In this document: positions 3,335 through 20,571 of the stretch, piece by piece
How the letters are laid out: every line of letters starts with the position of its first letter
How positions within the stretch are numbered: position 1 is the first letter of the stretch
Source: Mesoterricola sediminis
Lineage (GTDB): Bacteria; Acidobacteriota; Holophagae; Holophagales; Holophagaceae
DNA length: 64,000 bases
Direction: 5' to 3'
Assembly (NCBI RefSeq): GCF_030295425.1
Contig: NZ_AP027081.1
Location: 558,001 to 622,000 of the forward strand
Notes under the pieces: generated by a model
The model's input: only the letters and a program-made list of their open reading frames with translations
Databases searched by the model: none
What the model was told of the DNA's origin: nothing
Translations under genes and position numbers: made by a program

Positions 3335-4462
3335 TTGATCCACCCTCGGTCCCCCCAGCCCGATGTTCTGAGCCGCTCCGGGCTGCCTGCGCTGGCCTTC
3401 CTGGCGCCCTGGGGGCTGTCGGGATTCCGGTGGCCCGGTGCCTTGGCAGGCGTCCTGGCGGCCGGCTGCACCGTCGCCGCCCGGCGTTTCGCCACCCAGG
3501 CCCCCGCGGCCGGCGCCCCCCCGGCGCCCGTCCCGGAGGCCCCCGCGCCGGCGCCCGGGGCGGCCCCCCTGGCCCAGGTGGCCCAGGCCGTGGTGCCGGT
3601 GTGGGCGGGGCAGACCGCCGAGGCCCGGCAGCAGATGGAGGAGGCCATCCGGGGCCTGGCCTCGCGGTTCGCGGGCATGCACGGGGAGCTGCGCAAGGCC
3701 CTGGACACCTCGGGGCTGGAGAGCAACCGGGAGCTGCAGGGAATCATCGACCGGGGGTCGGAGGCCCTGGCGGGGGTGGTGCGGGACCTGGCGGAGGGGG
3801 CCCGGGCCCGGGCCGTGGTGCTGGAGAAGATCCGGGGGCTGGCGGCGATCACGGAGGAGCTGCGGGCCATGAGCGAGGAGGTGGCCTCCATCGCCAACCA
3901 GACCAACCTGCTGGCCCTGAACGCGGCCATCGAGGCGGCCCACGCCCGGGAGCTGGGGCGGGGCTTCGCGGTGGTGGCCGACGAGGTGCGCAAGCTCTCG
4001 GAGCGCTCGGGCACGACGGGGAACGCGATCACGACCAAGGTGGCGTGGGTGAACCAGTCGCTGCTGGAGACCCTGCGGGAGACGGAGGCCTTCGGGGACC
4101 GGGAGGCGGAGGTGATCCACCGGGCGGAGGCGACCATCCACCGGGTGGTGGAGGACATCCAGGCCGGGGCGACGGACCTGTCGGGTTCGGCGCGGCGGTT
4201 CGAGGAGGCCGGGGAGGACCTGGGCCGGGAGATCTCGGGGACGCTGGTGCACCTGCAGTTCCAGGACCGGGTCTCGCAGATCCTGCAGAGCGTGATCGCG
4301 GACATGGAGAAGTTCGCGGCGGAGGTCGCGGGGGGCGGGGCGCTGGACGCGGCCGCGTGGCTCCGGGACCTGGAGCGCACGTACACGACGCTGGAGCAGC
4401 TCGCCGTGCACCACGGCGAGGGCGCGGGGGCGTCCGACGAATCCGACATCACCTTCTTCTGA
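3335..4462 (+). CDS. short receptor-like chemotaxis protein with CheZ-like tail (block A copy)
   Basis: A 375-residue protein lacking any periplasmic sensor domain. A short hydrophobic N-terminus (about 18-48) may anchor it; a proline/alanine linker follows. The MCP hairpin tip is present at about 186-225 ([15 protein letters not shown], then [17 protein letters not shown]), so it should bind CheA/CheW. Beyond the hairpin, [11 protein letters not shown] contains D311 and Q315, the D-x3-Q spacing of the CheZ phosphatase motif, and the protein ends in acidic/aromatic DESDITFF, reminiscent of the CheY-binding tail of CheZ. The gene precedes cheY by 8 bases. Start is TTG 3335 behind TTGGAG; the paralogue at 13317 gives exactly the same length from its GTG, which supports both non-ATG starts. 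The CheZ-like role is inference. Confidence 0.8.
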
Positions 4463-4470
4463 GTGGAGCC

Positions 4471-4839
4471 ATGGCCAGGACGATCATGATCATCGACGAT
4501 TCCGTGAGCCTGCGGCAGGTGGTGGGCATCGCCCTCGCCGGGGCGGGCTACGAGGTGATCGAGGCCTGCGACGGCCAGGACGCGCTGTCGAAGCTCACGG
4601 GCCAGAAGGTGCACCTGATGGTGTGCGACGTGAACATGCCCAACATGGACGGGATCACGTTCCTGAAGACGGTGCGGACGCTGCCGGCCTACAGATTCAC
4701 GCCGATCATCATGCTGACGACGGAAGCGGGCGAAGAGAAGAAGAAGGAGGGCCAGGCCGCGGGGGCGCGGGCCTGGGTGGTCAAGCCCTTCAAGCCCGAG
4801 CAGCTCCTGATGGCGGTTTCCAAACTCATCCTTCCCTGA
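4471..4839 (+). CDS. cheY: CheY-type single-domain response regulator (block A)
   Basis: A 122-residue stand-alone receiver. The acidic pocket is D9-D10 (IIDDS), the phosphoacceptor is D53 (VCDVNMP), the switch threonine is T83 (LTTEAG) and the conserved lysine is K105 (VVKPF). It should take phosphate from CheA and act as the output protein, at a flagellar motor or another machine such as type IV pili; no motor genes are in the window to decide. It sits 8 bases after the short receptor gene and 9 before the STAS gene, so co-transcribed. It differs from the block C copy at only three positions (R3/K, R75/K, E110/D), so the two CheY proteins are probably interchangeable. Confidence 0.93.
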   Translation: MARTIMIIDDSVSLRQVVGIALAGAGYEVIEACDGQDALSKLTGQKVHLMVCDVNMPNMDGITFLKTVRTLPAYRFTPIIMLTTEAGEEKKKEGQAAGARAWVVKPFKPEQLLMAVSKLILP

Positions 4840-5176: not shown

Positions 5177-7333
5177 ATGGACATGGATCAGGTCAAGCAG
5201 ACGTTCATCACGGAGTGCCAGGAGCTCCTGGCGGCCATGGAGGAGGCCCTCCTGGGCCTCGAGGCGCAGCCGGACCCCGCCGAGTCCATCAACGCCATCT
5301 TCCGGGCGGTGCACACCATCAAGGGGTCGGCGGGCCTCTTCGGCCTGGATCCCATCGTGCGGTTCGCCCACGCGGTCGAGTCGGTCATGGACCGGGTGCG
5401 CGGGGGCCAGCTGGCCCTGGACGGCGACCTGGTGGGGCTCCTCCTGGCCTGCCACGATCACCTCGTGGTCCTCATCCAGGAGGGCACGGACGCCGAAGGG
5501 CAGCTCAGCCCGGAGCTCGGCGCGGAAGGGGACCGGCTTCTGGAGGCCCTGGTGCCCTGGCTGAAGGGGGAGGTGGCGACGGCGGCCATCCGGCCTGAAC
5601 CCACGGGCCATCCGGCCGCGGGCCGCGATCACTGGCACCTGTCGGTGCGCTTCGCCCCCACGGTGCTCCAGACGGGCATGGACCCCCTGTCCTTCGTGCG
5701 GTATCTGGGCACCCTGGGCCGGATGGTGCACATGCACGCCCTCCTGGAGGGGCTCCCCGCCGGGGAGGCCTTCGACCCGGAGCAGTGCTACCTGGGCCTG
5801 GAGATGGACCTGGAGACGGACGCCGACCGGAAGACCCTGGAGGACGTGTTCGAGTTCGTGCGGGAGGAGAGCCAGGTCCGGCTGATCCCGCCCCAGGCCA
5901 AGGTGGAGGCGTACCTGGCCCTGATCCGGGAGCTGCCCGACGAGGAGCACCTGCTGGGCGAGATCCTGGTGGCCGGGGGCTGCATCACCGAGTACGACCT
6001 GGCCGAGGCGCTGCGGGTGCAGCGGGAGGCGGAGGACGGCCGGAAGGTGGGGACGATCCTCGTGCAGGACCAGGACGTGCCGGCCCCCGTGGTGGCGGCG
6101 GCGCTGGAGAAGCAGAAGAAGGCCCAGGACCGCCAGGCCGGGGAGCTGAAGATCGTGAAGGTCTCGGCGGACAAGCTGGACAAGCTCGTGGACCTGGTGG
6201 GAGAGCTGGTGATCGCCGGGGCCAGCGCGCAGACCCGCGCGGCGGGGGCCCGGGACGGATCGCTGCTGGAGTCCCTGACGGTGGTGAACAAGCTCGTGGA
6301 GGAGATCCGGGACAACGCCCTGAGTCTGCGGATGGTGCAGATCGGGGAGACGTTCGCGCGGTTCCGGCGGGTGGTGCGGGACGTGTCGAAGGAGCTGGGC
6401 AAGGCCATCGACCTGGAGGTGCAGGGGGCCGAGACCGAGCTGGACAAGTCGATCGTGGAGAAGCTGGCGGACCCGCTGATGCACATCGTGCGGAACGCCA
6501 TCGACCACGGGATCGAGACGCTGGAGGTGCGTCGGGCGCGGGGGAAGCCGGATACGGGTTCGCTGGCGCTGAACGCGTTCCACGAGTCGGGGAGCATCGT
6601 CATCGAGGTGAGCGACGACGGCGGCGGCCTGGACCGGGCGCGGATCCTGCGGAAGGCCGTGGAGCGCGGGCTGGTGCAGGAGGGCGCGGAGCTGTCGGAC
6701 GCGGAGATCAACGCGATGATCTTCGAGCCGGGGTTCTCCACGGCGGCGGCGGTGACGAACCTGTCGGGCCGGGGCGTGGGCATGGACGTGGTGCGCCGGA
6801 ACATCGACGAGCTGCGGGGCACGGTCGAGGTGGAAAGCTACGAGGGCGCGGGCACGACGATCCGGCTGCGCCTGCCGCTGACCCTGGCCATCATCGACGG
6901 CTTCATGGTGACCGTCGGGGAGGCCACGTACGTGGTGCCCCTGGACATGATCATCGAGTGCCTGGACCTGGGCCCGTTCCTGGAGTCGGAGGAGAACCAC
7001 CTGATCAACCTGCGGGGCGAGGTGCTGCCCTTCCTGCGGCTGCGGGAGGTGCTGGGTTCGCCCGGGGAGCGCCCGGCGCGGGAGCGGGTGGTGGTGGTGC
7101 AGTTCGGGGAGACCCGGGCGGGCATCGTCGTGGACCGGCTGCTGGGAGAGTTCCAGACGGTCATCAAGCCGCTGGGGAGCCTGTTCCAGCACCTGCGGGG
7201 CGTGGGCGGGTCCACGATCCTGGGCTCGGGCAAGGTGGCCCTGGTCCTGGACGTGCCCGAACTGGTCCAGCTCGCCGTGGGCGGGCGCAGTCAGCCCGGC
7301 CGCATCCTCCCGGCCCTCGCCCAGGGCTCCTGA
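5177..7333 (+). CDS. cheA: chemotaxis histidine kinase CheA (block A)
   Basis: A 718-residue CheA. The P1 HPt domain carries H46 (AVHTIKGSAG). A P2-like segment spans about 145-245, from DHWHLSVRFAP. About 259-318 comes an insert with two tandem helical motifs (LGEILV...ITEYDLAEAL and VGTILV...VVAAALEKQ) resembling the MshEN/GspE N-terminal repeat. Then follow the dimerisation helices (DKLDKLVDLVGELVIA), the ATPase with N-box IVRNAIDHGIE, DDGGGLD and GRGVGMDVV, and a C-terminal CheW-like P5 domain. It autophosphorylates at receptor arrays and feeds CheY and CheB. It starts 10 bases after the STAS gene. From about residue 290 to 553 it is identical to CheA of block C, but the P1-P2 linker differs. 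Start ATG 5177 follows GGACC and is conserved in both copies. Confidence 0.94.
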   Translation: MDMDQVKQTFITECQELLAAMEEALLGLEAQPDPAESINAIFRAVHTIKGSAGLFGLDPIVRFAHAVESVMDRVRGGQLALDGDLVGLLLACHDHLVVLIQEGTDAEGQLSPELGAEGDRLLEALVPWLKGEVATAAIRPEPTGHPAAGRDHWHLSVRFAPTVLQTGMDPLSFVRYLGTLGRMVHMHALLEGLPAGEAFDPEQCYLGLEMDLETDADRKTLEDVFEFVREESQVRLIPPQAKVEAYLALIRELPDEEHLLGEILVAGGCITEYDLAEALRVQREAEDGRKVGTILVQDQDVPAPVVAAALEKQKKAQDRQAGELKIVKVSADKLDKLVDLVGELVIAGASAQTRAAGARDGSLLESLTVVNKLVEEIRDNALSLRMVQIGETFARFRRVVRDVSKELGKAIDLEVQGAETELDKSIVEKLADPLMHIVRNAIDHGIETLEVRRARGKPDTGSLALNAFHESGSIVIEVSDDGGGLDRARILRKAVERGLVQEGAELSDAEINAMIFEPGFSTAAAVTNLSGRGVGMDVVRRNIDELRGTVEVESYEGAGTTIRLRLPLTLAIIDGFMVTVGEATYVVPLDMIIECLDLGPFLESEENHLINLRGEVLPFLRLREVLGSPGERPARERVVVVQFGETRAGIVVDRLLGEFQTVIKPLGSLFQHLRGVGGSTILGSGKVALVLDVPELVQLAVGGRSQPGRILPALAQGS

Positions 7334-7457: not shown

Positions 7458-9092
7458 ATGAACTGGTTCAGGCGTCTCAGGCTCGCAGCGCAGCTCCTGC
7501 TGGCCTTCATCTGCGTTTCCATGGTTTCCGTGATCGTCGGCGGCATCGCCCTGGGCGGCGCGGGCAGCATCAACGACCGCGCCGAGCATACCTACGAGGA
7601 CGCCGTGGTGCCCCTCCGGAACATGTCGGGGGCCCTGATCGAGCTGGCCTCCCTGCAGCAGCGCTTCCTCTATGCCGTCATCGCGCGCAGCGAGGAGACC
7701 CGCGCCAAGGAGACCCAGAACATGGGCAAGGCCCAGACCCAGATCCTGGACTGGGCCAAGAAGGAGCGGGCCACGGACATGACGCCGGCGGAGACCGAGG
7801 CCTGGAAGCGCTTCGACGGGGCCTGGCCGGAGTACCTGGCGGTCCTGGAGAAGGGGCTGGCCTTCGCGAAGGCCAAGAAGGACGATGAGGCCCGGCGGGT
7901 GATGGAGGAGGAGGCGCGGCCCCGGTACCTGGCCCTCCGCAAGACCTTCGACGAGATCATCGAGGCCAACCTCGGGGCCGCCGAGAAGGCCACCAAGGCC
8001 AACCAGGCCCTCTACGTGTCCTTCCGGGGCACCACCCTGGCGGTCATCGTCGTGGGCTTCGCCCTGTCCATCGGCCTGGGCCTGCTGGTCACCCGGGTGA
8101 TCCGCGGCCAGGTGGGTGGCGAGCCGAAGGACGCCGCCGACGTGGCCCAGAAGGTGGCCGCCGGCGACCTCACCGTGGAGGTGGACCTGGCCCGGGGCGA
8201 CACGACGAGCATGATGGCCTCCATCCACGCCATGGTCCTCAAGCTCCGCGAGGTGATCGGGCAGGTGCGCGAGAACGCCGAGTCCCTGGTGGGGGCCTCG
8301 GAGCAGCTCAGCTCCACGGCCCAGTCCCTGAGCCAGGGCGCCAGTGAACAGGCCGCCAGCGTGGAGGAGACCAGCGCCTCCATGGAGCAGATGAGCGCGT
8401 CCATCGCCCAGAACAACGAGAACGCCAAGGTCACCGGCGACATCGCGACCCGGACGGCCAAGGAAGCGGGTGAAGGCGGCGAGGCCGTGCGGGCCACCGT
8501 CGGCGCCATGAAGCAGATCGCCCAGAAGATCGCCATCATCGACGACATCGCCTACCAGACCAACCTCCTGGCCCTCAACGCCGCCATCGAGGCGGGCCGG
8601 GCCGGGGAGCACGGCCGCGGCTTCGCCGTGGTGGCCGCCGAGGTCCGCAAGCTGGCCGAGCGCAGCCAGGTGGCGGCCCAGGAAATCGGGGAGGTGGCCA
8701 CCAGCAGCGTCGAACTCGCGGAACGGGCCGGCAAGCTTCTCGATGCCATCGTGCCCTCCATCCAGAAGACCTCGGACCTGGTCATGGAGATCGCCGCCGC
8801 CAGCAGCGAGCAGAACGCGGGGGTCGGCCAGATCAACGGGGCCATCGGGCAGATCAGCCAGGCGGTGGCCCAGAACGCGGCCGCCTCGGAGGAAATGGCC
8901 TCCACGTCCGAGGAAGTGAGCGCCCAGGCCGAAGAACTGCAGTCGGTCATGGCCTTCTTCCACCTGGACCGCGGCCCCGCCCGGACGGCGGCTAAGCGGT
9001 CGGGCGGCGCCCGCGCGGCCGCCAAGCCCGGGCCGGCCCGGGCCCGGGCCGCCCAGGCTGACGTGGACGAGCGCGAATTCACGAACTTCTGA
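7458..9092 (+). CDS. methyl-accepting chemotaxis protein, four-helix-bundle sensor (block A)
   Basis: A 544-residue transmembrane receptor. TM1 is about 11-33, a helical periplasmic sensor of the 4HB_MCP kind spans about 35-189, TM2 is about 190-213, and a HAMP domain (from RGQVGGEP) leads into a long cytoplasmic hairpin. Likely methylation helices include [20 protein letters not shown]; the tip reads [16 protein letters not shown] and [18 protein letters not shown]. After a basic, alanine/proline-rich linker the protein ends DEREFTNF; related endings in two other receptors here suggest a docking peptide for CheR/CheB. It is closest to the receptor at 18934. The cheW gene follows 37 bases later. 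The ligand cannot be predicted. Confidence 0.93.
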
Positions 9093-10093: not shown

Positions 10094-11704
10094 ATGTCCT
10101 GGTTCAAGTCCCTTCGCCTGGCCACCCAGCTCCTCGTGGGCTTCATCACCGTCGCCTTCCTGGCCGGGGTGGTGGGGGTCATCGGCCTCGTCTACATCCA
10201 GTGGCTGGCCAAGGCCGACGCCTACATGTACGAACGGACGATGGCCCCCATGAAGGACGTGGTGGCCATCGTCAGCAATTTCCAGCTGAAGCGCAACACC
10301 CTCAGCAAGGTGGTGGCCGCCCCGGACCGGGAGAAGCTGGACGCCCTTCTGGAGGCCCTGCCCAGGCTCGACAAGGCCATCCAGGACGCCAGCGCCTCCT
10401 ATGCCCGGGGCTTCGTGAACGCCGAGGACAAGGCCGACTTCGAGCGCCTCATGGCCACCTTCGAGGCCTATGACCGGGAGGTGACCGGGCCCACCATCGC
10501 GGCGAAGCGCGCCAACAAGGTCGCCGACGCCGTGGCCATCTCCTACAGCGCCCGCGTGGTGCAGCTGGGCGGCGAGGTCAATGCGTGCCTGGACAAGCTG
10601 GTCCAGGTGAACCTGGACACGGCCCACCACGTGTCCGAGGCCAATGAAAAGACGGCCACTTCCGCCACCGAAGGGATGGGGGCCGCCATCACCGCCGCCG
10701 TGGTCGTCGCCATCGTCCTGGGCCTGCTGGTGACCCGCCTCATCAAGGGCCAGGTGGGGGGCGAGCCCGCGGAGGCGGCCCTCGTGGCGCAGCGGGTGGC
10801 CGCCGGCGACCTCACCGTGGAAGTGGCGCTGGCGCCGGGCGACACCACGAGCCTGATGGCCTCCATCCACGGGATGGTGGCCAAGCTCCGGGAGGTCATC
10901 GGCCAGGTGCGGGAGACCGCGGGCAGCCTCGTCGGCGCCTCGGAGCAGCTCAGCGCCACGGCCCAGTCCCTGAGCCAGGGCGCCAGTGAACAGGCCGCCA
11001 GCGTGGAGGAGACCAGCGCCTCCATGGAGGAGATGAGCGCCTCCATCGCCCAGAACAACGAGAACGCCAAGGTCACCGGGGACATCGCCACCCGGACTGC
11101 CAAGGAAGCGGTCGAAGGCGGCGAGGCCGTGCGGGCCACGGTGGGCGCCATGAAGCAGATTGCCCAGAAGATCGCCATCATCGATGACATCGCCTACCAG
11201 ACCAACCTCCTGGCCCTCAACGCCGCCATCGAGGCGGGACGGGCCGGGGAGCATGGCCGGGGCTTCGCCGTGGTGGCCGCCGAGGTGCGGAAGCTGGCCG
11301 AGCGCAGCCAGGTGGCGGCCCAGGAGATCGGCGAGGTGGCCACCAGCAGCGTCGAGCTGGCGGAGCGCGCCGGCCAGCTCCTGGACACCATCGTGCCCGC
11401 CATCCAGAAAACGTCGGACCTGGTCCAGGAGATCGCCGCCGCCAGCAGCGAGCAGAACGCGGGGGTCGGCCAGATCAACGGCGCCATCGGGCAGATCAGC
11501 CATGCGGTGGCGCAGAACGCCGCGGCCTCCGAGGAGATGGCCTCCACCTCCGAAGAGGTGAGCGCCCAGGCCGAGGAACTCCAGTCGGCCATGGCCTTCT
11601 TCCACCTGGCCGGCCAGCCCGCCGAGACCCGGAGGACCCGGGCGCGGGTGGCCCCCCGGGCCGCCCACGCCGAGCTGGACGAGCGCTCATTCACGAACTT
11701 CTGA
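10094..11704 (+). CDS. methyl-accepting chemotaxis protein, four-helix-bundle sensor (block B)
   Basis: A 536-residue transmembrane receptor of the second subtype here, starting [14 protein letters not shown]1 is about 10-33, the periplasmic helical sensor about 35-193, TM2 about 194-217, then HAMP and the signalling hairpin with [16 protein letters not shown] at the tip. The cytoplasmic half is nearly the same as in the receptor at 7458, while the sensor half is unrelated to it and instead matches the receptor at 17343, showing domain swapping by recombination among paralogues. It ends DERSFTNF, one of the shared tail peptides. It has its own long leader upstream and a cheW 34 bases downstream, so it heads a two-gene unit. 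Confidence 0.93.
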
Positions 11705-13090: not shown

Positions 13091-13316
13091 GGGGGCCTCC
13101 GGAAGCGGGGGGATGGCTTCCAGCTTACCCCAGCGGGGCGCCGGAGGGTCCGGGCCCGGGGGGATTGCATTTTTCAATACTGCAACACCCACCAAAGATT
13201 GAGTTTGTCGGAAATATTCCGATGAAATGTTCTACGATTGCTTTCCCCTTTCCTGTTTTCAAACCTGTGCCATCGTGGGCACCAGCCTGAAGCCAACCCC
13301 TTCCTGGAGCGTTTCC
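13091..13316. promoter_or_regulatory. divergent promoter region before chemotaxis block C
   Basis: A 226-base gap between the SHOCT gene and block C with an AT-rich stretch at about 13165-13255. It contains an inverted repeat TCGGAA-ATA-TTCCGA at 13208-13222 that closely matches one before purL (30313-30327) and shares its left half with the block B leader. A ribosome-binding site TGGAG precedes the GTG at 13317. The bases 13227-13316 could be read as an N-terminal extension of the next gene, but length conservation with the block A copy argues against it. Confidence 0.5.
13208..13222. promoter_or_regulatory. 15-base inverted repeat, candidate operator
   Basis: The repeat has 6-base arms TCGGAA and TTCCGA around a 3-base centre. 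It lies 95 bases upstream of the block C start codon in the AT-rich part of the gap. The same design (YCGGAA-3-TTCCGR) occurs at 30313-30327. The binding factor is unknown. Confidence 0.4.
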
Positions 13317-14444
13317 GTGATTGCCGTCGCCAAGTCCATCCCGGAGGCCTTGGGCCGCGCAGGCCTGCCGGCCGTCGCCTTCCTGGCGCCCTGGGGGCTC
13401 TCGGGGTTCCGGTGGCCCGGTGCCTTAGCAGGCGTCCTGGCGGCCGGCTGCACCGTCGCCGCCCGGCGTTTCGCCACCCAGGCCCCCGCGGCCGGCGCCC
13501 CCCCGGCGCCCGTCCCGGAGGCCCCCGCGCCGGCGCCCGGGGCGGCCCCCCTGGCCCAGGTGGCCCAGGCCGTGGTGCCGGTGTGGGCGGGGCAGACCGC
13601 CGAGGCCCGGCAGCAGATGGAGGAGGCCATCCGGGGCCTGGCCTCGCGGTTCGCGGGCATGCACGGGGAGCTGCGCAAGGCCCTGGACACCTCGGGGCTG
13701 GAGAGCAACCGGGAGCTGCAGGGAATCATCGACCGGGGGTCGGAGGCCCTGGCGGGGGTGGTGCGGGACCTGGCGGAGGGGGCCCGGGCCCGGGCCGTGG
13801 TGCTGGAGAAGATCCGGGGGCTGGCGGCGATCACGGAGGAGCTGCGGGCCATGAGCGAGGAGGTGGCCTCCATCGCCAACCAGACCAACCTGCTGGCCCT
13901 GAACGCGGCCATCGAGGCGGCCCACGCCCGGGAGCTGGGGCGGGGCTTCGCGGTGGTGGCCGACGAGGTGCGCAAGCTCTCGGAGCGCTCGGGCACGACG
14001 GGCAACGCGATCACGACCAAGGTGGCGTGGGTGAACCAGTCGCTGCTGGAGACCCTGCGGGAGACGGAGGCCTTCGGGGACCGGGAGGCGGAGGTGATCC
14101 GCCGGGCGGAGGCGACCATCCACCGGGTGGTGGAGGACATCCAGGCCGGGGCGACGGACCTTTCGGGTTCGGCGCGGCGGTTCGAGGAGGCCGGGGAGGA
14201 CCTGGGCCGGGAGATCTCGGGGACGCTGGTGCACCTGCAGTTCCAGGACCGGGTCTCGCAGATCCTGCAGAGCGTGATCGCGGACATGGAGAAGTTCGCG
14301 GCGGAGGTCGCGGGGGGCGGGGCGCTGGACGCGGCCGCGTGGCTCCGGGACCTGGAGCGCACCTACACGACGCTGGAGCAGCTCGCCGTGCACCACGGCG
14401 AGGGCGCGGGGGCGTCCGACGAATCCGACATCACCTTCTTCTGA
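13317..14444 (+). CDS. short receptor-like chemotaxis protein with CheZ-like tail (block C copy)
   Basis: A 375-residue near-duplicate of the protein at 3335. After residue 20 the two differ at one position only (H262 versus R). Only the first 20 residues are unrelated in detail ([20 protein letters not shown] here). It has the same hydrophobic N-terminus, MCP hairpin tip, D-x3-Q motif in [11 protein letters not shown], and DESDITFF end. Start GTG 13317 follows TGGAG and yields exactly the length of copy 1; an upstream ATG at 13227 is in frame but would add 30 residues absent from the paralogue. It is 8 bases before cheY. Likely role: cytoplasm-facing member of the array and possible CheY-P phosphatase; the latter is inferred from the motif. 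Confidence 0.8.
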
Positions 14445-14452
14445 GTGGAGCC

Positions 14453-14821
14453 ATGGCCAAGACGATCATGATCATCGACGATTCCGTGAGCCTGCGGCAG
14501 GTGGTGGGCATCGCCCTCGCCGGGGCGGGCTACGAGGTGATCGAGGCCTGCGACGGCCAGGACGCGCTGTCGAAGCTCACGGGCCAGAAGGTGCACCTGA
14601 TGGTGTGCGACGTGAACATGCCCAACATGGACGGCATCACGTTCCTGAAGACGGTGCGGACGCTGCCGGCCTACAAATTCACGCCGATCATCATGCTGAC
14701 GACGGAAGCGGGCGAAGAGAAGAAGAAGGAGGGCCAGGCCGCGGGGGCGCGGGCCTGGGTGGTCAAGCCCTTCAAGCCCGACCAGCTCCTGATGGCGGTT
14801 TCCAAGCTCATCCTTCCCTGA
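14453..14821 (+). CDS. cheY: CheY-type single-domain response regulator (block C)
   Basis: A 122-residue receiver with the same pocket as the block A copy: D9-D10, phosphoacceptor D53, T83 and K105. It differs at three conservative positions (K3, K75, D110). It is 8 bases after the short receptor gene and 9 bases before the STAS gene. With such identity, cross-talk between both CheA kinases and both CheY proteins is expected unless they are expressed at different times. Confidence 0.93.
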   Translation: MAKTIMIIDDSVSLRQVVGIALAGAGYEVIEACDGQDALSKLTGQKVHLMVCDVNMPNMDGITFLKTVRTLPAYKFTPIIMLTTEAGEEKKKEGQAAGARAWVVKPFKPDQLLMAVSKLILP

Positions 14822-14830
14822 GGTGCGGCG

Positions 14831-15148
14831 ATGCTGACATTCATCCGTTCGGGGCCGGTGCTGAAGCTGGAGGGCGAGCTTACGATCTTCGAGGCGGGTG
14901 AGGCCCGGGCGCGGCTCCGGGAGGAGCTGCACCAGGCGCCCCTGGAGCTGGACCTGTCCGGGGTGACGGAGGTGGACACCGCCGGCATCCAGGTCCTGCT
15001 CTGGCTCAAGCGGGAAGGCAAGGCCGCGGGGACCCCCGTGCCCTTCGGGAACCACAGCCCCGCGGTGGTGGAGGTCCTGGACCTGCTCCACCTGACGGGG
15101 GCGTTCGGGGACACCCTCGTCATCGCGCCCACCTCCCACCCTTCCTGA
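14831..15148 (+). CDS. STAS-domain protein in chemotaxis operon (block C)
   Basis: A 105-residue STAS domain with the DLSGVTEVDTAGIQ core; it is the counterpart of the protein at 4849 with 13 substitutions, grouped near the N-terminus and in the last 20 residues. Given that cheY on one side is nearly unchanged between copies, this excess of changes is notable. It sits between cheY (9 bases) and cheA (10 bases). Its role in this cluster type is not established; binding to CheA or to CheY-P turnover is a reasonable guess. Confidence 0.85.
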   Translation: MLTFIRSGPVLKLEGELTIFEAGEARARLREELHQAPLELDLSGVTEVDTAGIQVLLWLKREGKAAGTPVPFGNHSPAVVEVLDLLHLTGAFGDTLVIAPTSHPS

Positions 15149-15158
15149 GGACCGCGCC

Positions 15159-17318
15159 ATGGACATGGATCAGGTCAAGCAGACGTTCATCGCGGAGTGC
15201 CGGGAACTCCTCGAGGCCATGGAGGAGGCCCTCCTGGGCCTCGAGGATCAGGCGGAGCCCGCCGAGTCCATCAACGCCATCTTCCGGGCGGTGCACACCA
15301 TCAAGGGGTCGGCGGGCCTGTTCGGCCTGGATCCCATCGTGCGGTTCGCCCACACGGTGGAGTCGGTCATGGACCGGGTGCGCGGCGGGCAGTTGGCGCT
15401 GGGGGGGGAGCTGGTGGGGCTGTTCCTGGCCTGCCACGATCACCTGGTGGCCCTCATCCAGGGCATCTCGGCCGGGGAGGCGGAACCCGAGGGACTCGCC
15501 GCCGAAGGGGACCGGCTCCTGGAGGCCCTCGTGCCCTGGCTGGAGGGCTCCGTGGCGACCCTGGCCGAACCGGTCCGGCCCGAGGTGGCGGCGCGCCCTG
15601 GCGGCACCCGGGACCACTGGCACCTGTCGGTGCGGTTCGCCCCCACGGTGCTGCAGCTGGGCATGGATCCCCTGTCCTTCGTGCGCTTCCTGGGCACCCT
15701 GGGCCGGATGGTGCACATGCACGCGATCCTGGACGGGCTCCCCGCCGGGGGGGCCTTCGACCCGGAGCAGTGCTACCTGGGCCTGGAGATGGACCTGGAG
15801 ACGGACGCCGACCGGAAGACCCTGGAGGACGTGTTCGAGTTCGTGCGGGAGGAGAGCCGGGTCCGGCTGATCCCGCCCCAGGCCAAGGTGGAGGAATACC
15901 TGGCCCTGATCCGGGAGCTGCCCGACGAGGAGCACCTGCTGGGCGAGATTCTGGTGGCCGGAGGCTGCATCACCGAGTACGACCTGGCCGAGGCGCTGCG
16001 GGTGCAGCGGGAGGAGGAGGACGGCCGGAAGGTGGGGACGATCCTCGTGCAGGACCAGGACGTGCCGGCCCCCGTGGTGGCGGCGGCGCTGGAGAAGCAG
16101 AAGAAGGCCCAGGACCGCCAGGCCGGGGAGCTGAAGATCGTGAAGGTCTCGGCGGACAAGCTGGACAAGCTGGTGGACCTGGTGGGGGAGCTGGTGATCG
16201 CCGGGGCCAGCGCGCAGACCCGCGCGGCGGGGGCCCGGGACGGATCGCTGCTGGAGTCCCTGACGGTGGTGAACAAGCTCGTGGAGGAGATCCGGGACAA
16301 CGCCCTGAGCCTGCGGATGGTGCAGATCGGGGAGACGTTCGCGCGGTTCCGGCGGGTGGTGCGGGACGTGTCGAAGGAGCTGGGCAAGGCCATCGACCTG
16401 GAGGTGCAGGGGGCCGAGACCGAGCTGGACAAGTCGATTGTGGAGAAGCTGGCGGACCCGCTGATGCACATCGTGCGGAACGCCATCGACCACGGGATCG
16501 AGACGCTGGAGGTGCGTCGGGCGCGGGGGAAGCCGGATACGGGTTCGCTGGCGCTGAACGCGTTCCACGAGTCGGGGAGCATCGTCATCGAGGTGAGCGA
16601 CGACGGCGGCGGCCTGGACCGGGCGCGGATCCTGCGGAAGGCCGTGGAGCGCGGGCTGGTGCAGGAGGGCGCGGAGCTGTCGGACGCGGAGATCAACGCG
16701 ATGATCTTCGAGCCGGGGTTCTCCACGGCGGCGGCGGTGACGAACCTGTCGGGCCGGGGCGTGGGCATGGACGTGGTGCGCCGGAACATCGACGAGCTGC
16801 GGGGCACGATCGAGGTGGAGAGCTACGAGGGCGCGGGCACGACGATCCGGCTGCGCCTGCCGCTGACCCTGGCCATCATCGACGGCTTCATGGTGGGGGT
16901 GGGCGACACGACGTACGTGGTGCCCCTGGACATGATCATCGAGTGCCTGGACCTGGGCCCGTTCCTGGAGTCGGAGGAGAACCATCTGATCAACCTGCGG
17001 GGCGAGGTGCTGCCCTTCCTGCGGCTGCGGGAGGTGCTGGGTTCGCCCGGGGAGCGCCCGGCGCGGGAGCGGGTGGTGGTGGTGCAGTTCGGGGAGACCC
17101 GGGCGGGCATCGTCGTGGACCGGCTGCTGGGCGAATTCCAGACCGTCATCAAGCCGCTGGGGAGCCTGTTCCAGCACCTGCGGGGCGTGGGCGGGTCCAC
17201 GATCCTGGGCTCGGGCAGGGTGGCCCTGGTCCTGGACGTGCCCCAGCTGGTCCAGCTCGCCTCCGAATCGCGCGCGCACCCGGGCCGGGACCTGCCGGCC
17301 CTCTCCACCAACCGCTGA
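15159..17318 (+). CDS. cheA: chemotaxis histidine kinase CheA (block C)
   Basis: A 719-residue CheA with the same domain order as the block A copy: P1 with H46, P2-like segment, the two-motif MshEN-like insert, dimerisation helices, ATPase (IVRNAIDHGIE, DDGGGLD, GRGVGMDVV) and P5. From about residue 290 to 553 the two proteins are identical, and the DNA is nearly so. Differences cluster at about residues 12-22, 80-150 (the P1-P2 linker, one residue longer here), at RGTIEV and GVGDTTYV in the ATPase/P5 border, and at the extreme C-terminus. This kinase is in the operon that carries cheR, cheB and cheD, so it is the better candidate for the adapting pathway. The receptor gene follows 24 bases later. 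Confidence 0.94.
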   Translation: MDMDQVKQTFIAECRELLEAMEEALLGLEDQAEPAESINAIFRAVHTIKGSAGLFGLDPIVRFAHTVESVMDRVRGGQLALGGELVGLFLACHDHLVALIQGISAGEAEPEGLAAEGDRLLEALVPWLEGSVATLAEPVRPEVAARPGGTRDHWHLSVRFAPTVLQLGMDPLSFVRFLGTLGRMVHMHAILDGLPAGGAFDPEQCYLGLEMDLETDADRKTLEDVFEFVREESRVRLIPPQAKVEEYLALIRELPDEEHLLGEILVAGGCITEYDLAEALRVQREEEDGRKVGTILVQDQDVPAPVVAAALEKQKKAQDRQAGELKIVKVSADKLDKLVDLVGELVIAGASAQTRAAGARDGSLLESLTVVNKLVEEIRDNALSLRMVQIGETFARFRRVVRDVSKELGKAIDLEVQGAETELDKSIVEKLADPLMHIVRNAIDHGIETLEVRRARGKPDTGSLALNAFHESGSIVIEVSDDGGGLDRARILRKAVERGLVQEGAELSDAEINAMIFEPGFSTAAAVTNLSGRGVGMDVVRRNIDELRGTIEVESYEGAGTTIRLRLPLTLAIIDGFMVGVGDTTYVVPLDMIIECLDLGPFLESEENHLINLRGEVLPFLRLREVLGSPGERPARERVVVVQFGETRAGIVVDRLLGEFQTVIKPLGSLFQHLRGVGGSTILGSGRVALVLDVPQLVQLASESRAHPGRDLPALSTNR

Positions 17319-18933: not shown

Positions 18934-20571
18934 ATGAACTGGTACAGGCGCCTTCGGCTTGCCGCGCAACTGCTGCTCGCCTTCGTCCTCGTCTCCTTCG
19001 TCTCCGTGATCATCGGGACCATCGCCCTCGGCGGGGCCTCCAGGATCAATGACCGGGCCAAGGAGAGCTACACCAACGCCGTCGTGCCCCTCCGGTACAT
19101 GTCGGGCTGCGTCGTGCAGACGGCGGCCCTCCAGATGCGCTTCCTGTACGCCCTGACGGCCCGCACCGAGGAGGCCCGCGACAAGGAGATCGCAGGCATG
19201 GACACCGCCCGGGCCACGGTCCTCGAGTGGGTCAAGAAGGAGCGCAGCACCCAGATGTCCCAGGAGGAGCTGGACGGCTGGAAGCAGTTCGACGCGGCCT
19301 GGCCCGAGTACGTGGCCCTCCAGAACAAGGCCCTGGGCCTCGTCAAGGCCAAGAAGGAGGACGAGGCGCGGCGGATCATGCTGGAGGAAGTGCGGCCGAA
19401 GTACGTCAGCATCCGCAGCGCCTTCGAGGCCATCACCGAGGCCAACCTCAAGGTGGCCGACAGCGACACCAAGGCCAACGAGACCCTGTTCCGCTCGTTC
19501 CGCGGGACCACGATCCTCCTCAACGTCCTGGGCTTCCTGGGCTCCATCGGGCTGGGCCTCCTGGTCACCCGGGTCATCCGGCGCCAGGTGGGCGGCGAAC
19601 CGAAGGATGCCGCCGAAGTGGCCCAGAAGGTGGCCTCCGGCGACCTCACCGTGGAGGTGGAGGTGGCGCGCGACGACACCACGAGCATGATGGCCTCCAT
19701 CCGGGACATGGTCCTCAAGTTGCGGGAGGTGATCGGCCAGGTGCGGGACAACGCCGGGACCCTCGTGGGCGCCTCGGAGCAGCTCAGCTCCACCGCCCAG
19801 TCCCTGAGCCAGGGGGCCAGCGAACAGGCTGCCAGCGTGGAGGAGACCAGCGCCTCCATGGAGGAAATGAGCGCCTCCATCGCCCAGAACAACGAGAACG
19901 CCAAGGTCACCGGCGACATCGCCACCCGCACCTCCCGGGAGACCGTCGAGGGCGGCGAGGCCGTGCGCGAGACGGTGGGCGCCATGAAGCAGATCGCCCA
20001 GAAGATCGCCATCATCGACGACATCGCCTACCAGACGAACCTCCTGGCCCTCAACGCCGCCATCGAGGCGGGCCGGGCCGGCGAGCACGGCAAGGGCTTC
20101 GCCGTGGTGGCCGCCGAGGTCCGCAAGCTGGCCGAGCGCAGCCAGGTGGCGGCGGAGGAGATCAGCCGGCTGGCCGAGGGCAGCGTGGACCTGGCCGAAC
20201 GTGCCGGCAAGCTGCTCGACACCATCGTCCCCTCCATCCAGAAGACGTCGGACCTCGTCATGGAGATCGCCGCGGCCAGCAGCGAGCAGAACGCGGGCGT
20301 CGGCCAGATCAACGGCGCCATCGGGCAGATCAGCCAGGCGGTGGCCCAGAACGCGGCCGCCTCGGAGGAACTGGCCTCCACGTCCGAGGAAGTGAGCGCC
20401 CAGGCCATGGAACTGCAGAGCACGGTTGATTTCTTCCGCCTGGATACCCAGCGGAGCAGCGCGTCGGCCCCCCGGCGCAAGGCGACGCCGCCGGCCCAGG
20501 CCCCCCGGAAGGCGGCCGCCCCGGCGCCCCGGGTTGACGAGATGGATGAGCGGGATTTCGCCCGCTTCTGA
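18934..20571 (+). CDS. methyl-accepting chemotaxis protein, four-helix-bundle sensor (block C, second)
   Basis: A 545-residue receptor of the MNW(F/Y)RRLRLAAQ subtype, homologous throughout to the receptor at 7458. TM1 is about 11-33, the helical periplasmic sensor about 35-189, TM2 about 190-214, then HAMP (RRQVGGEP) and the hairpin. It differs from the 7458 and 10094 receptors after the tip, reading [15 protein letters not shown], which it shares with the receptor at 17343. A long basic linker (about 505-530) ends in [11 protein letters not shown] 18934 follows AGGTGA. The gap to cheW is 60 bases and holds a strong hairpin. Confidence 0.93.

What the first reader, a model, noticed from the sequence alone, without database searches (positions are those of the whole stretch)
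4256..4462. Receptor-like protein with a CheZ-like phosphatase motif and tail, encoded directly before cheY
After a normal MCP hairpin, the 375-residue protein has [11 protein letters not shown], with D311 and Q315 spaced as the catalytic D143 and Q147 of CheZ, and ends in acidic/aromatic DESDITFF, like the CheY-binding CheZ tail. There is no sensor domain, no CheZ, CheC or CheX gene here, and the gene is 8 bases from cheY in both copies. It may be an array-bound CheY-P phosphatase made from a receptor scaffold.
Basis: partly seen in the sequence, partly recalled or inferred. Interest (0 to 1): 0.66.

Follow-up and report, generated by a model that had tools for sequence, protein, structure and literature searches.

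The report
CheZ-like phosphatase module inside chemoreceptor
A poorly understood class of bacterial "chemoreceptors" carries, in its stem, the same two-residue catalytic motif as the CheZ phosphatase that switches off the chemotaxis messenger CheY, so it is probably the missing off-switch of its signalling system rather than an ordinary sensor; the activity itself is not yet tested.

Summary
Window 3335-4462 encodes a membrane-anchored protein with an MCP hairpin, then [11 protein letters not shown] (D311, Q315), and a DESDITFF end, 8 bp before cheY. A near-identical second copy lies at 13227-14444. It is no one-off. It belongs to the McpA-like (CttP/PA0180, VCA1088) receptors of F7 chemosensory systems, whose strikingly conserved C-terminus was published as of "unclear" function. 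In 75 aligned relatives Q-F-Q-D-R-x-x-Q is invariant, and all 80 loci fetched have cheY next door. The site is more conserved than the receptor tip: Herbaspirillum has lost the tip and keeps site, tail and cheY. Five hairpin-free proteins are the stem module alone. A CheZ-only profile aligns F-Q-D-x3-Q in register in 74 of 75, and shuffling 22 residues abolishes the signal. D and Q lie on the helix's polar face, as in CheZ.

Best reading: a CheZ-type response-regulator phosphatase module, with the MCP hairpin inserted in its hairpin, acting on the adjacent CheY (0.6). It fails the CheZ family cut-off, so it works like CheZ but is not filed as CheZ. "Array-bound" is unsupported. Catalysis is untested.

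The parts
3335..4462 (+). McpA-like protein, copy 1 (375 aa; TTG start inferred from a GGAG 5 nt upstream)
   Evidence: MCPsignal 78.3 bits
3380..3484 (+). hydrophobic N-terminal anchor (about residues 16-50), probably a short membrane hairpin
   Evidence: sequence; McpA-like receptors are reported to have a predicted TM region (PMC7184735)
3569..3712 (+). stem helix N (residues 79-126) with conserved P88 (70/75) and W90 (74/75), expected opposite the D-x3-Q
3734..4186 (+). MCP signalling hairpin (about residues 134-284), inserted between the two stem helices
   Evidence: MCPsignal 162-281; model helix breaks at 127-129 and 284-286; absent in hairpin-free relatives
4193..4333 (+). stem helix C (residues 287-333) carrying the CheZ-like site
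4253..4285 (+). [11 protein letters not shown], residues 307-317; D311 = 4265-4267, Q315 = 4277-4279
4358..4411 (+). conserved W342...Y350-T-T-x-E354-Q...H359 segment, two short helices with the highest model confidence (block means 92 and 89)
4439..4459 (+). acidic-aromatic C-terminal tail ESDITFF; F374 74/75, F375 75/75
4471..4839 (+). CheY, copy 1: probable substrate
   Evidence: Response_reg 92.4 bits
4849..5166 (+). STAS-domain protein (anti-sigma-factor-antagonist type)
5177..7333 (+). CheA (Hpt, dimerisation, ATPase, CheW domains)
13227..14444 (+). McpA-like protein, copy 2 (open frame 405 aa, start uncertain); D = 14247-14249, Q = 14259-14261
   Evidence: 98% identical to copy 1
14453..14821 (+). 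CheY, copy 2
14831..15148 (+). STAS-domain protein, copy 2
15159..17318 (+). CheA, copy 2

Best explanation
The gene encodes an McpA-like F7 protein whose stem is a CheZ-type response-regulator phosphatase module. SHOWN by sequence: a membrane anchor; a stem made of helix N (79-126) and helix C (287-333); an MCP hairpin between them; and an invariant F-Q-D-R-x-x-Q on helix C with the catalytic spacing of CheZ and on the polar face. A conserved W/YTT/EQ/H segment and an acidic-aromatic tail follow, the last F lying 60 residues after Q315 (67 in E. coli CheZ). The gene is linked to its own cheY. INFERRED: two subunits form a four-helix stem. The tail captures phosphorylated CheY, D311 contacts the CheY active-site lysine, and the Q315 amide positions water for hydrolysis of the aspartyl phosphate, as in CheZ. 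This would supply the F7 pathway with the CheY-P off-switch it otherwise lacks. The MCP hairpin would place or regulate the phosphatase at receptor clusters, but is dispensable for the module.
For: (1) Invariant Q308-F309-Q310-D311-R312...Q315 in 75/75. (2) A profile from 12 proteobacterial CheZ gives the family a median 11.4 bits, 72/75 at or above 5 bits, motif in register in 74/75. Shuffling the 22-residue motif window leaves 0/75; motif-free MCPs give 0/13. PF04344 itself hits 45/75 at E<=1, best 2.9e-5, and rang on McpA-like genes in whole-genome scans. (3) HHalign puts FQD on FQD (P 0.0025-0.008) against 0.21-0.26 for control MCPs. (4) The genome's own CheZ reads LQFQDITRQ. (5) cheY directly downstream in 80/80 loci against 0/13 control MCPs. 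(6) Natural separation: 9 Herbaspirillum relatives lost the receptor tip but keep site, tail and cheY-STAS-cheA, a derived loss. Five hairpin-free proteins match the stem profiles. (7) D and Q lie on the polar face, 129 and 169 degrees from the hydrophobic axis; Holophagaceae CheZ 135 and 175. (8) Cognate CheYs all have N at 59 and E at 89 where read (80/80, 79/79), as in E. coli CheY. (9) Stage 1-2 F7 clusters have cheY but no cheZ (PMC7184735).
Against: The CheZ similarity is local (about 22 residues); no member reaches the CheZ gathering score and the window protein itself has no CheZ hit at E<=1. Coiled-coil bias makes helical profiles weakly cross-match (Apolipoprotein 24/75). The hairpin-free proteins score low with the home-made CheZ profiles. 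The tail only loosely resembles the CheZ tail. R312 replaces the CheZ leucine. The monomer model gives no coordinates or inter-domain errors, so dimer geometry and CheY docking could not be judged. Every McpA-positive genome checked also has a true CheZ, so the cell is not without a phosphatase. Genes such as L188 sit next to cheB, not cheY. P. aeruginosa CttP is reported as a trichloroethylene receptor (via PMC7534058).
Confidence: 0.6

Rival explanations
1. CheY-binding scaffold without catalysis. The stem and tail hold CheY (or CheY-P) near the membrane or CheA, and D-x3-Q is part of the docking surface.
For: cheY adjacency 80/80; conserved tail and W/YTT segment, which CheZ lacks and which could be the real partner-binding part.
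Against: Docking alone does not predict strict retention of both the acid and the amide at the CheZ spacing on the solvent face, with R312 and Q310 also fixed.
Confidence: 0.15
2. Ordinary receptor whose conserved C-terminus is an adaptation-enzyme tether (CheR, CheB or CheD), D-x3-Q being structural.
For: Other MCPs in the window end in EFTNF, SFTNF or DFARF, matching the CheR pentapeptide pattern; ITFF is superficially similar.
Against: McpA-like tails do not match x-[HFYW]-x2-[HFYW], and P. aeruginosa McpA bound none of four CheRs (PMC7184735 citing Garcia-Fontana 2014). A tether does not explain the D-x3-Q, nor its survival where the receptor tip or whole hairpin is gone.
Confidence: 0.08
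3. Structural role only: the motif is a packing feature of the stem four-helix bundle, and its likeness to CheZ is coincidence.
For: P88 and W90 on the facing helix are also nearly invariant, and the profile signal is short.
Against: D, Q and R are polar and on the polar face; invariance exceeds that of the receptor tip; cheY linkage is unexplained.
Confidence: 0.1
4. A CheZ-type phosphatase acting mainly on another response regulator (CheB, or the flagellar CheY of another pathway).
For: L162/L164/L188 lie before cheB; McpA was reported to associate with F6 arrays (PMC7184735 citing its ref. 29); hairpin-free forms are not in che clusters.
Against: Immediate cheY neighbour in all 80 genome-contig loci and both window copies.
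Confidence: 0.07

Closest known systems
McpA-like receptors of F7 chemosensory systems (P. aeruginosa CttP/McpA/PA0180; V. cholerae VCA1088), PMC7184735, PMC7534058
   Same: Cluster content (cheY, STAS, cheA, pentapeptide-bearing MCPs); membrane anchor; no sensor domain; no pentapeptide; highly conserved C-terminus of the [DE][IV]TFF kind (the paper says valine at position 2 of the last five). L186 shows the published stage-1 order cheR-cheD-cheB-mcpA-STAS-phosphatase.
   Different: The published work describes them as receptors of unclear role. I found no statement of a CheZ-like site in the passages read, nor in the searches made. PA0180 and VCA1088 sequences were not retrieved here; identity rests on named Pseudomonas relatives, synteny and tail.
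CheZ (PF04344; E. coli D143/Q147, motif AxxFQ-DxxxQ, PMC7750401)
   Same: F-Q-D-x-x-x-Q in register; helix phase; tail 60 residues (CheZ 67) after the Q; two-helix hairpin stem expected to dimerise.
   Different: MCP hairpin inserted at the hairpin turn; membrane anchor; invariant R after D; W/YTT/EQ/H segment; below the CheZ cut-off.
HisKA_3 kinases such as NarX (DxxxQ phosphatase motif on the DHp helix, PMC3510030)
   Same: D-x3-Q on a helical-bundle helix.
   Different: No phospho-accepting histidine, no ATPase domain.
Methyl-accepting chemotaxis proteins (PF00015)
   Same: MCP signalling hairpin.
   Different: No sensor or HAMP domain; stem with D-x3-Q; the tip is dispensable in Herbaspirillum.

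Membership tests
McpA-like F7 receptor | MCP signalling domain | tested here: met
   78.3 bits against cut-off 34.6
McpA-like F7 receptor | beside an F7-type cluster (cheY, STAS, cheA, MCP with pentapeptide, cheW, cheR) | tested here: met
   CheA class F7 itself was not scored
McpA-like F7 receptor | no CheR pentapeptide but highly conserved C-terminus | tested here: met
   tail ESDITFF; conservation; compared with PMC7184735
McpA-like F7 receptor | sequence clusters directly with PA0180 or VCA1088 | not tested
   neither sequence was available by name; P. citronellolis (L124) and P. alcaligenes (L094) relatives were
CheZ (PF04344) | score over the curated cut-off (30.7 bits) | tested here: not met
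   window protein no hit at E<=1; best relative 24.5 bits
CheZ (PF04344) | catalytic D-x3-Q preceded by FQ | tested here: met
   75/75, in register with CheZ 74/75
CheZ (PF04344) | C-terminal CheY-binding peptide | tested here: inconclusive
   conserved acidic-aromatic tail, but a different sequence from VDDLLxSLGF
CheZ (PF04344) | dimeric four-helix bundle | tested here: inconclusive
   monomer model only, no coordinates given; CheZ not among the rows shown
CheZ (PF04344) | CheY-P phosphatase activity | not testable with these tools
   needs biochemistry
Methyl-accepting chemotaxis protein (functional receptor) | sensor or HAMP input domain | tested here: not met
   no such Pfam or NCBIfam domain

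The most novel reading that the evidence does not exclude
A widespread class of proteins annotated as chemoreceptors is really a family of CheY-P phosphatases. A CheZ-like hairpin stem carries an inserted MCP hairpin that couples it to receptor arrays, so that signals could set the rate of messenger destruction rather than only the rate of kinase firing; hairpin-free members are stand-alone CheZ-like phosphatases.
Probability: 0.35. Interest if true: 0.86.

Novelty: new variant of a known kind. Interest (0 to 1): 0.73.

Why it matters
F7 chemosensory systems, the ancestors of the E. coli chemotaxis system, carry a cheY but no cheZ in their early forms, and include an McpA-like "receptor" that the F7 array does not need and whose conserved C-terminus was published as of unclear role. 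A CheZ-type active site there would explain all three facts at once, predict the substrate, and turn an open question into a simple assay. It would also mean that many genes annotated as chemoreceptors are not mainly sensors, and that a receptor-shaped protein could control signal termination.

Tried and rejected
Pfam and PDB sequence search with the last 95 residues alone gave nothing useful (RecA and peptidase hits are repeat or composition noise). Foldseek and VIA searches with the monomer model returned generic helical bundles, designed proteins, BAR domains and MCP hairpins; CheZ was not among the rows shown, which proves nothing. A read-through McpA-CheY chain (L078, stop read as W, a natural in-frame neighbour) was modelled to look for docking; CheY folded well, but pTM was 0.58 and neither coordinates nor PAE were returned, so docking cannot be judged. 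Considered and rejected: CheR pentapeptide (pattern not matched; literature negative); chance motif (0 of 18 other MCPs in the genome); complete lack of CheZ in the genome (wrong). The first control set for the CheZ profile had only 5 MCPs; it was widened to 13, still small. The MAFFT alignment of a hairpin-free protein misplaced its N-terminal TM segment; the separate stem profiles were used instead. Literature was searched only in open-access PMC; a subscription paper or the supplementary figures of PMC7184735 could already note the CheZ likeness.

Full report
OBSERVATION. The frame 3335-4462 (+) gives 375 residues from a TTG start behind GGAG. L307-L317 is [11 protein letters not shown], with D311 at 4265-4267 and Q315 at 4277-4279. 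The protein ends DESDITFF, and cheY begins 8 bp after the stop. Copy 2 (frame 13227-14444) has the same site and tail and the same 8-bp gap. The McpA-CheY-STAS-CheA block is a tandem duplication, 95.5% identical over 3.9 kb. Pfam finds only MCPsignal. Two points need correction: the protein has a hydrophobic N-terminal anchor, and the genome does have CheZ (G000:C1:1771705-1772262) and CheX (about 1.541 Mb), outside the window.

WHAT FAMILY. Orthologues occur in 13 of 61 genomes of the family sampled, the window's own genome included; one of the 13 is the divergent form L046. Loci with names put this family at Holophagaceae/Geothrix of the Acidobacteriota. Across 396 genomes of the phylum, the only other hits are two divergent ones. 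A scan of named genomes returned at least 524 relatives; apart from Holophagaceae, the 80 kept are beta- and gammaproteobacteria such as Pseudomonas, Aeromonas, Herbaspirillum, Thauera, Thiobacillus and Cellvibrio. In the tree the Holophagaceae form one clade (100/100) next to gammaproteobacteria (98/85), consistent with one transfer. All 80 fetched loci have cheY as the next gene, followed in the loci inspected by STAS and CheA. This matches the McpA-like receptors of F7 systems (CttP/PA0180, VCA1088; PMC7184735, PMC7534058). That work reports that McpA-like receptors have a TM region, lack the CheR pentapeptide (valine in position 2 of the last five residues, as in the SSVTFF tail of L089), are not needed for the F7 array, and have a strikingly conserved C-terminus of "unclear" role. 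It also reports that stage 1-2 F7 clusters have cheY but no cheZ. L186 shows exactly the published stage-1 gene order. PA0180 and VCA1088 themselves were not retrieved, so this identification is strong but indirect.

THE SITE. In 75 aligned relatives, Q308, F309, Q310, D311, R312, Q315, W342, E354 and F375 are invariant; W90, Y350 and F374 are 74/75; P88 is 70/75 on the facing stem helix. The distance from hairpin tip to motif is the same, 116 residues, in every intact-hairpin relative where it was measured (counted as 115 with another pattern). More divergent members keep D-x3-Q: LQFEDITTQ...EVELF (L186), LQFQDLCSQ...VELF (L187), LQFQDRVAQ...EIEFF before cheB (L188), and two other Acidobacteriota members with QFQDRV.Q...[IV]ELF.

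COMPARISON WITH CheZ. CheZ hydrolyses CheY-P with D143 and Q147 on a four-helix bundle; its motif is AxxFQ-DxxxQ (PMC7750401, PMC3510030). The genome's own CheZ reads LQFQDITRQ. A profile built from 12 proteobacterial CheZ gives the McpA-like set a median of 11.4 bits, 72/75 at or above 5 bits, with FQD-x3-Q in register in 74/75. Shuffling the 22 residues around the motif leaves 0/75 above 5 bits. Thirteen motif-free MCPs give 0/13, and none of them is followed by cheY. PF04344 itself matches 45/75 at E<=1, best 2.9e-5, and rang on McpA-like genes during unbiased genome scans. NCBIfam's CheZ model is the top hit of a hairpin-free relative (E 0.0046, far below its cut-off). HHalign gives P 0.0025-0.008 with FQD on FQD, against 0.21-0.26 for control MCPs. 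With D and Q themselves left out of the moment, they lie 129 and 169 degrees from the hydrophobic axis, against 135 and 175 in Holophagaceae CheZ and 178 and -142 in proteobacterial CheZ. So the site is CheZ-like and solvent-facing, but the similarity is local. Common descent with CheZ is not shown, and the family cut-off is not met.

THE MODULE IS SEPARABLE FROM THE RECEPTOR. Nine Herbaspirillum relatives have lost the hairpin tip that contacts CheA/CheW: [29 protein letters not shown] is replaced by a few residues. They keep the site, a [QS]VDFF tail and the operon cheY-STAS-cheA. The loss is derived: they nest within intact-tip Chitinibacteraceae relatives (97/86). Five further proteins of about 182-235 aa (L181, L182, L183, L184, L185) have no MCP hairpin at all, yet match the C-stem profile (E 4e-13 to 2e-7) and the N-stem profile (E 1.6e-4 to 4e-3), in that order, among 87 proteins. 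The AlphaFold model of the window protein (pLDDT 80) breaks its helices at residues 127-129 and 284-286, the same stem/hairpin borders, and models the W342-H359 segment with the highest confidence (block means 92 and 89). The simplest anatomy is a two-helix stem with a CheZ-like site, into which a receptor hairpin is inserted.

MECHANISM (inferred). Two subunits pair into a four-helix stem. The acidic-aromatic tail, 60 residues beyond Q315 (67 in E. coli CheZ), captures CheY-P. D311 contacts the active-site lysine and Q315 orients the attacking water. The cognate CheYs have N at position 59 (80/80) and E at position 89 (79/79), and K109 wherever it was read (61), as in E. coli CheY. The result would be a dedicated off-switch for the F7 CheY, tethered to the membrane and possibly governed by the hairpin. 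No step of catalysis or docking has been shown. The fused McpA-CheY model could not be judged because coordinates and inter-domain errors were not available.

KNOWN OR NEW. The protein family is known; its function is published as unclear. I found no report of a CheZ-like site in it within open-access PMC. D-x3-Q phosphatases are known (CheZ, HisKA_3). Hence: a new variant of a known kind, with the phosphatase activity still to be tested.

Noticed in passing
window 3.2-7.3 kb and 13.2-17.3 kb: Recent tandem duplication of the McpA-CheY-STAS-CheA block (95.5% nt identity over 3.9 kb); the two CheYs differ only slightly, so two nearly parallel pathways run side by side.
   Followed up: partly
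window 5177-7333, residues 260-313: CheA carries a stretch close to the MshEN/c-di-GMP-binding motif model (NF053729, 35.9 bits against cut-off 38) between Hpt and dimerisation domain, where P2 would be expected; a possible c-di-GMP input to the kinase.
   Followed up: no
window 7458-9092, 10094-11704, 18934-20571: The other cluster MCPs end in EFTNF, SFTNF and DFARF, matching the CheR-type pentapeptide pattern, unlike the McpA-like protein.
   Followed up: partly
L046 (G058) 415-2565: One open frame holding a STAS-like stretch, an MCP hairpin, LQFEDLVHQ and a CheY domain: a possible natural fusion of the putative phosphatase with its substrate (the assembly contains N there, so a frameshift is not excluded).
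   Followed up: no
L183 6306-6980 (-), L184 6192-6899 (-), L185 5592-6140 (-): Small stand-alone proteins with FQFYDRLxQRLxH and tails DDIELF / HDIELF, no MCP hairpin and no che genes in the stretches fetched: possible stand-alone phosphatases of unknown target.
   Followed up: partly
L181 5643-6347, L182 5658-6362: Membrane-anchored, hairpin-free relatives between purHD and other housekeeping genes; a third genome (G508) has an in-frame stop in its copy.
   Followed up: partly
L031 5565-6560 (-): The genome's CheZ has an N-terminal HAMP-like stretch (26.7 bits, just over cut-off) before the CheZ domain.
   Followed up: no
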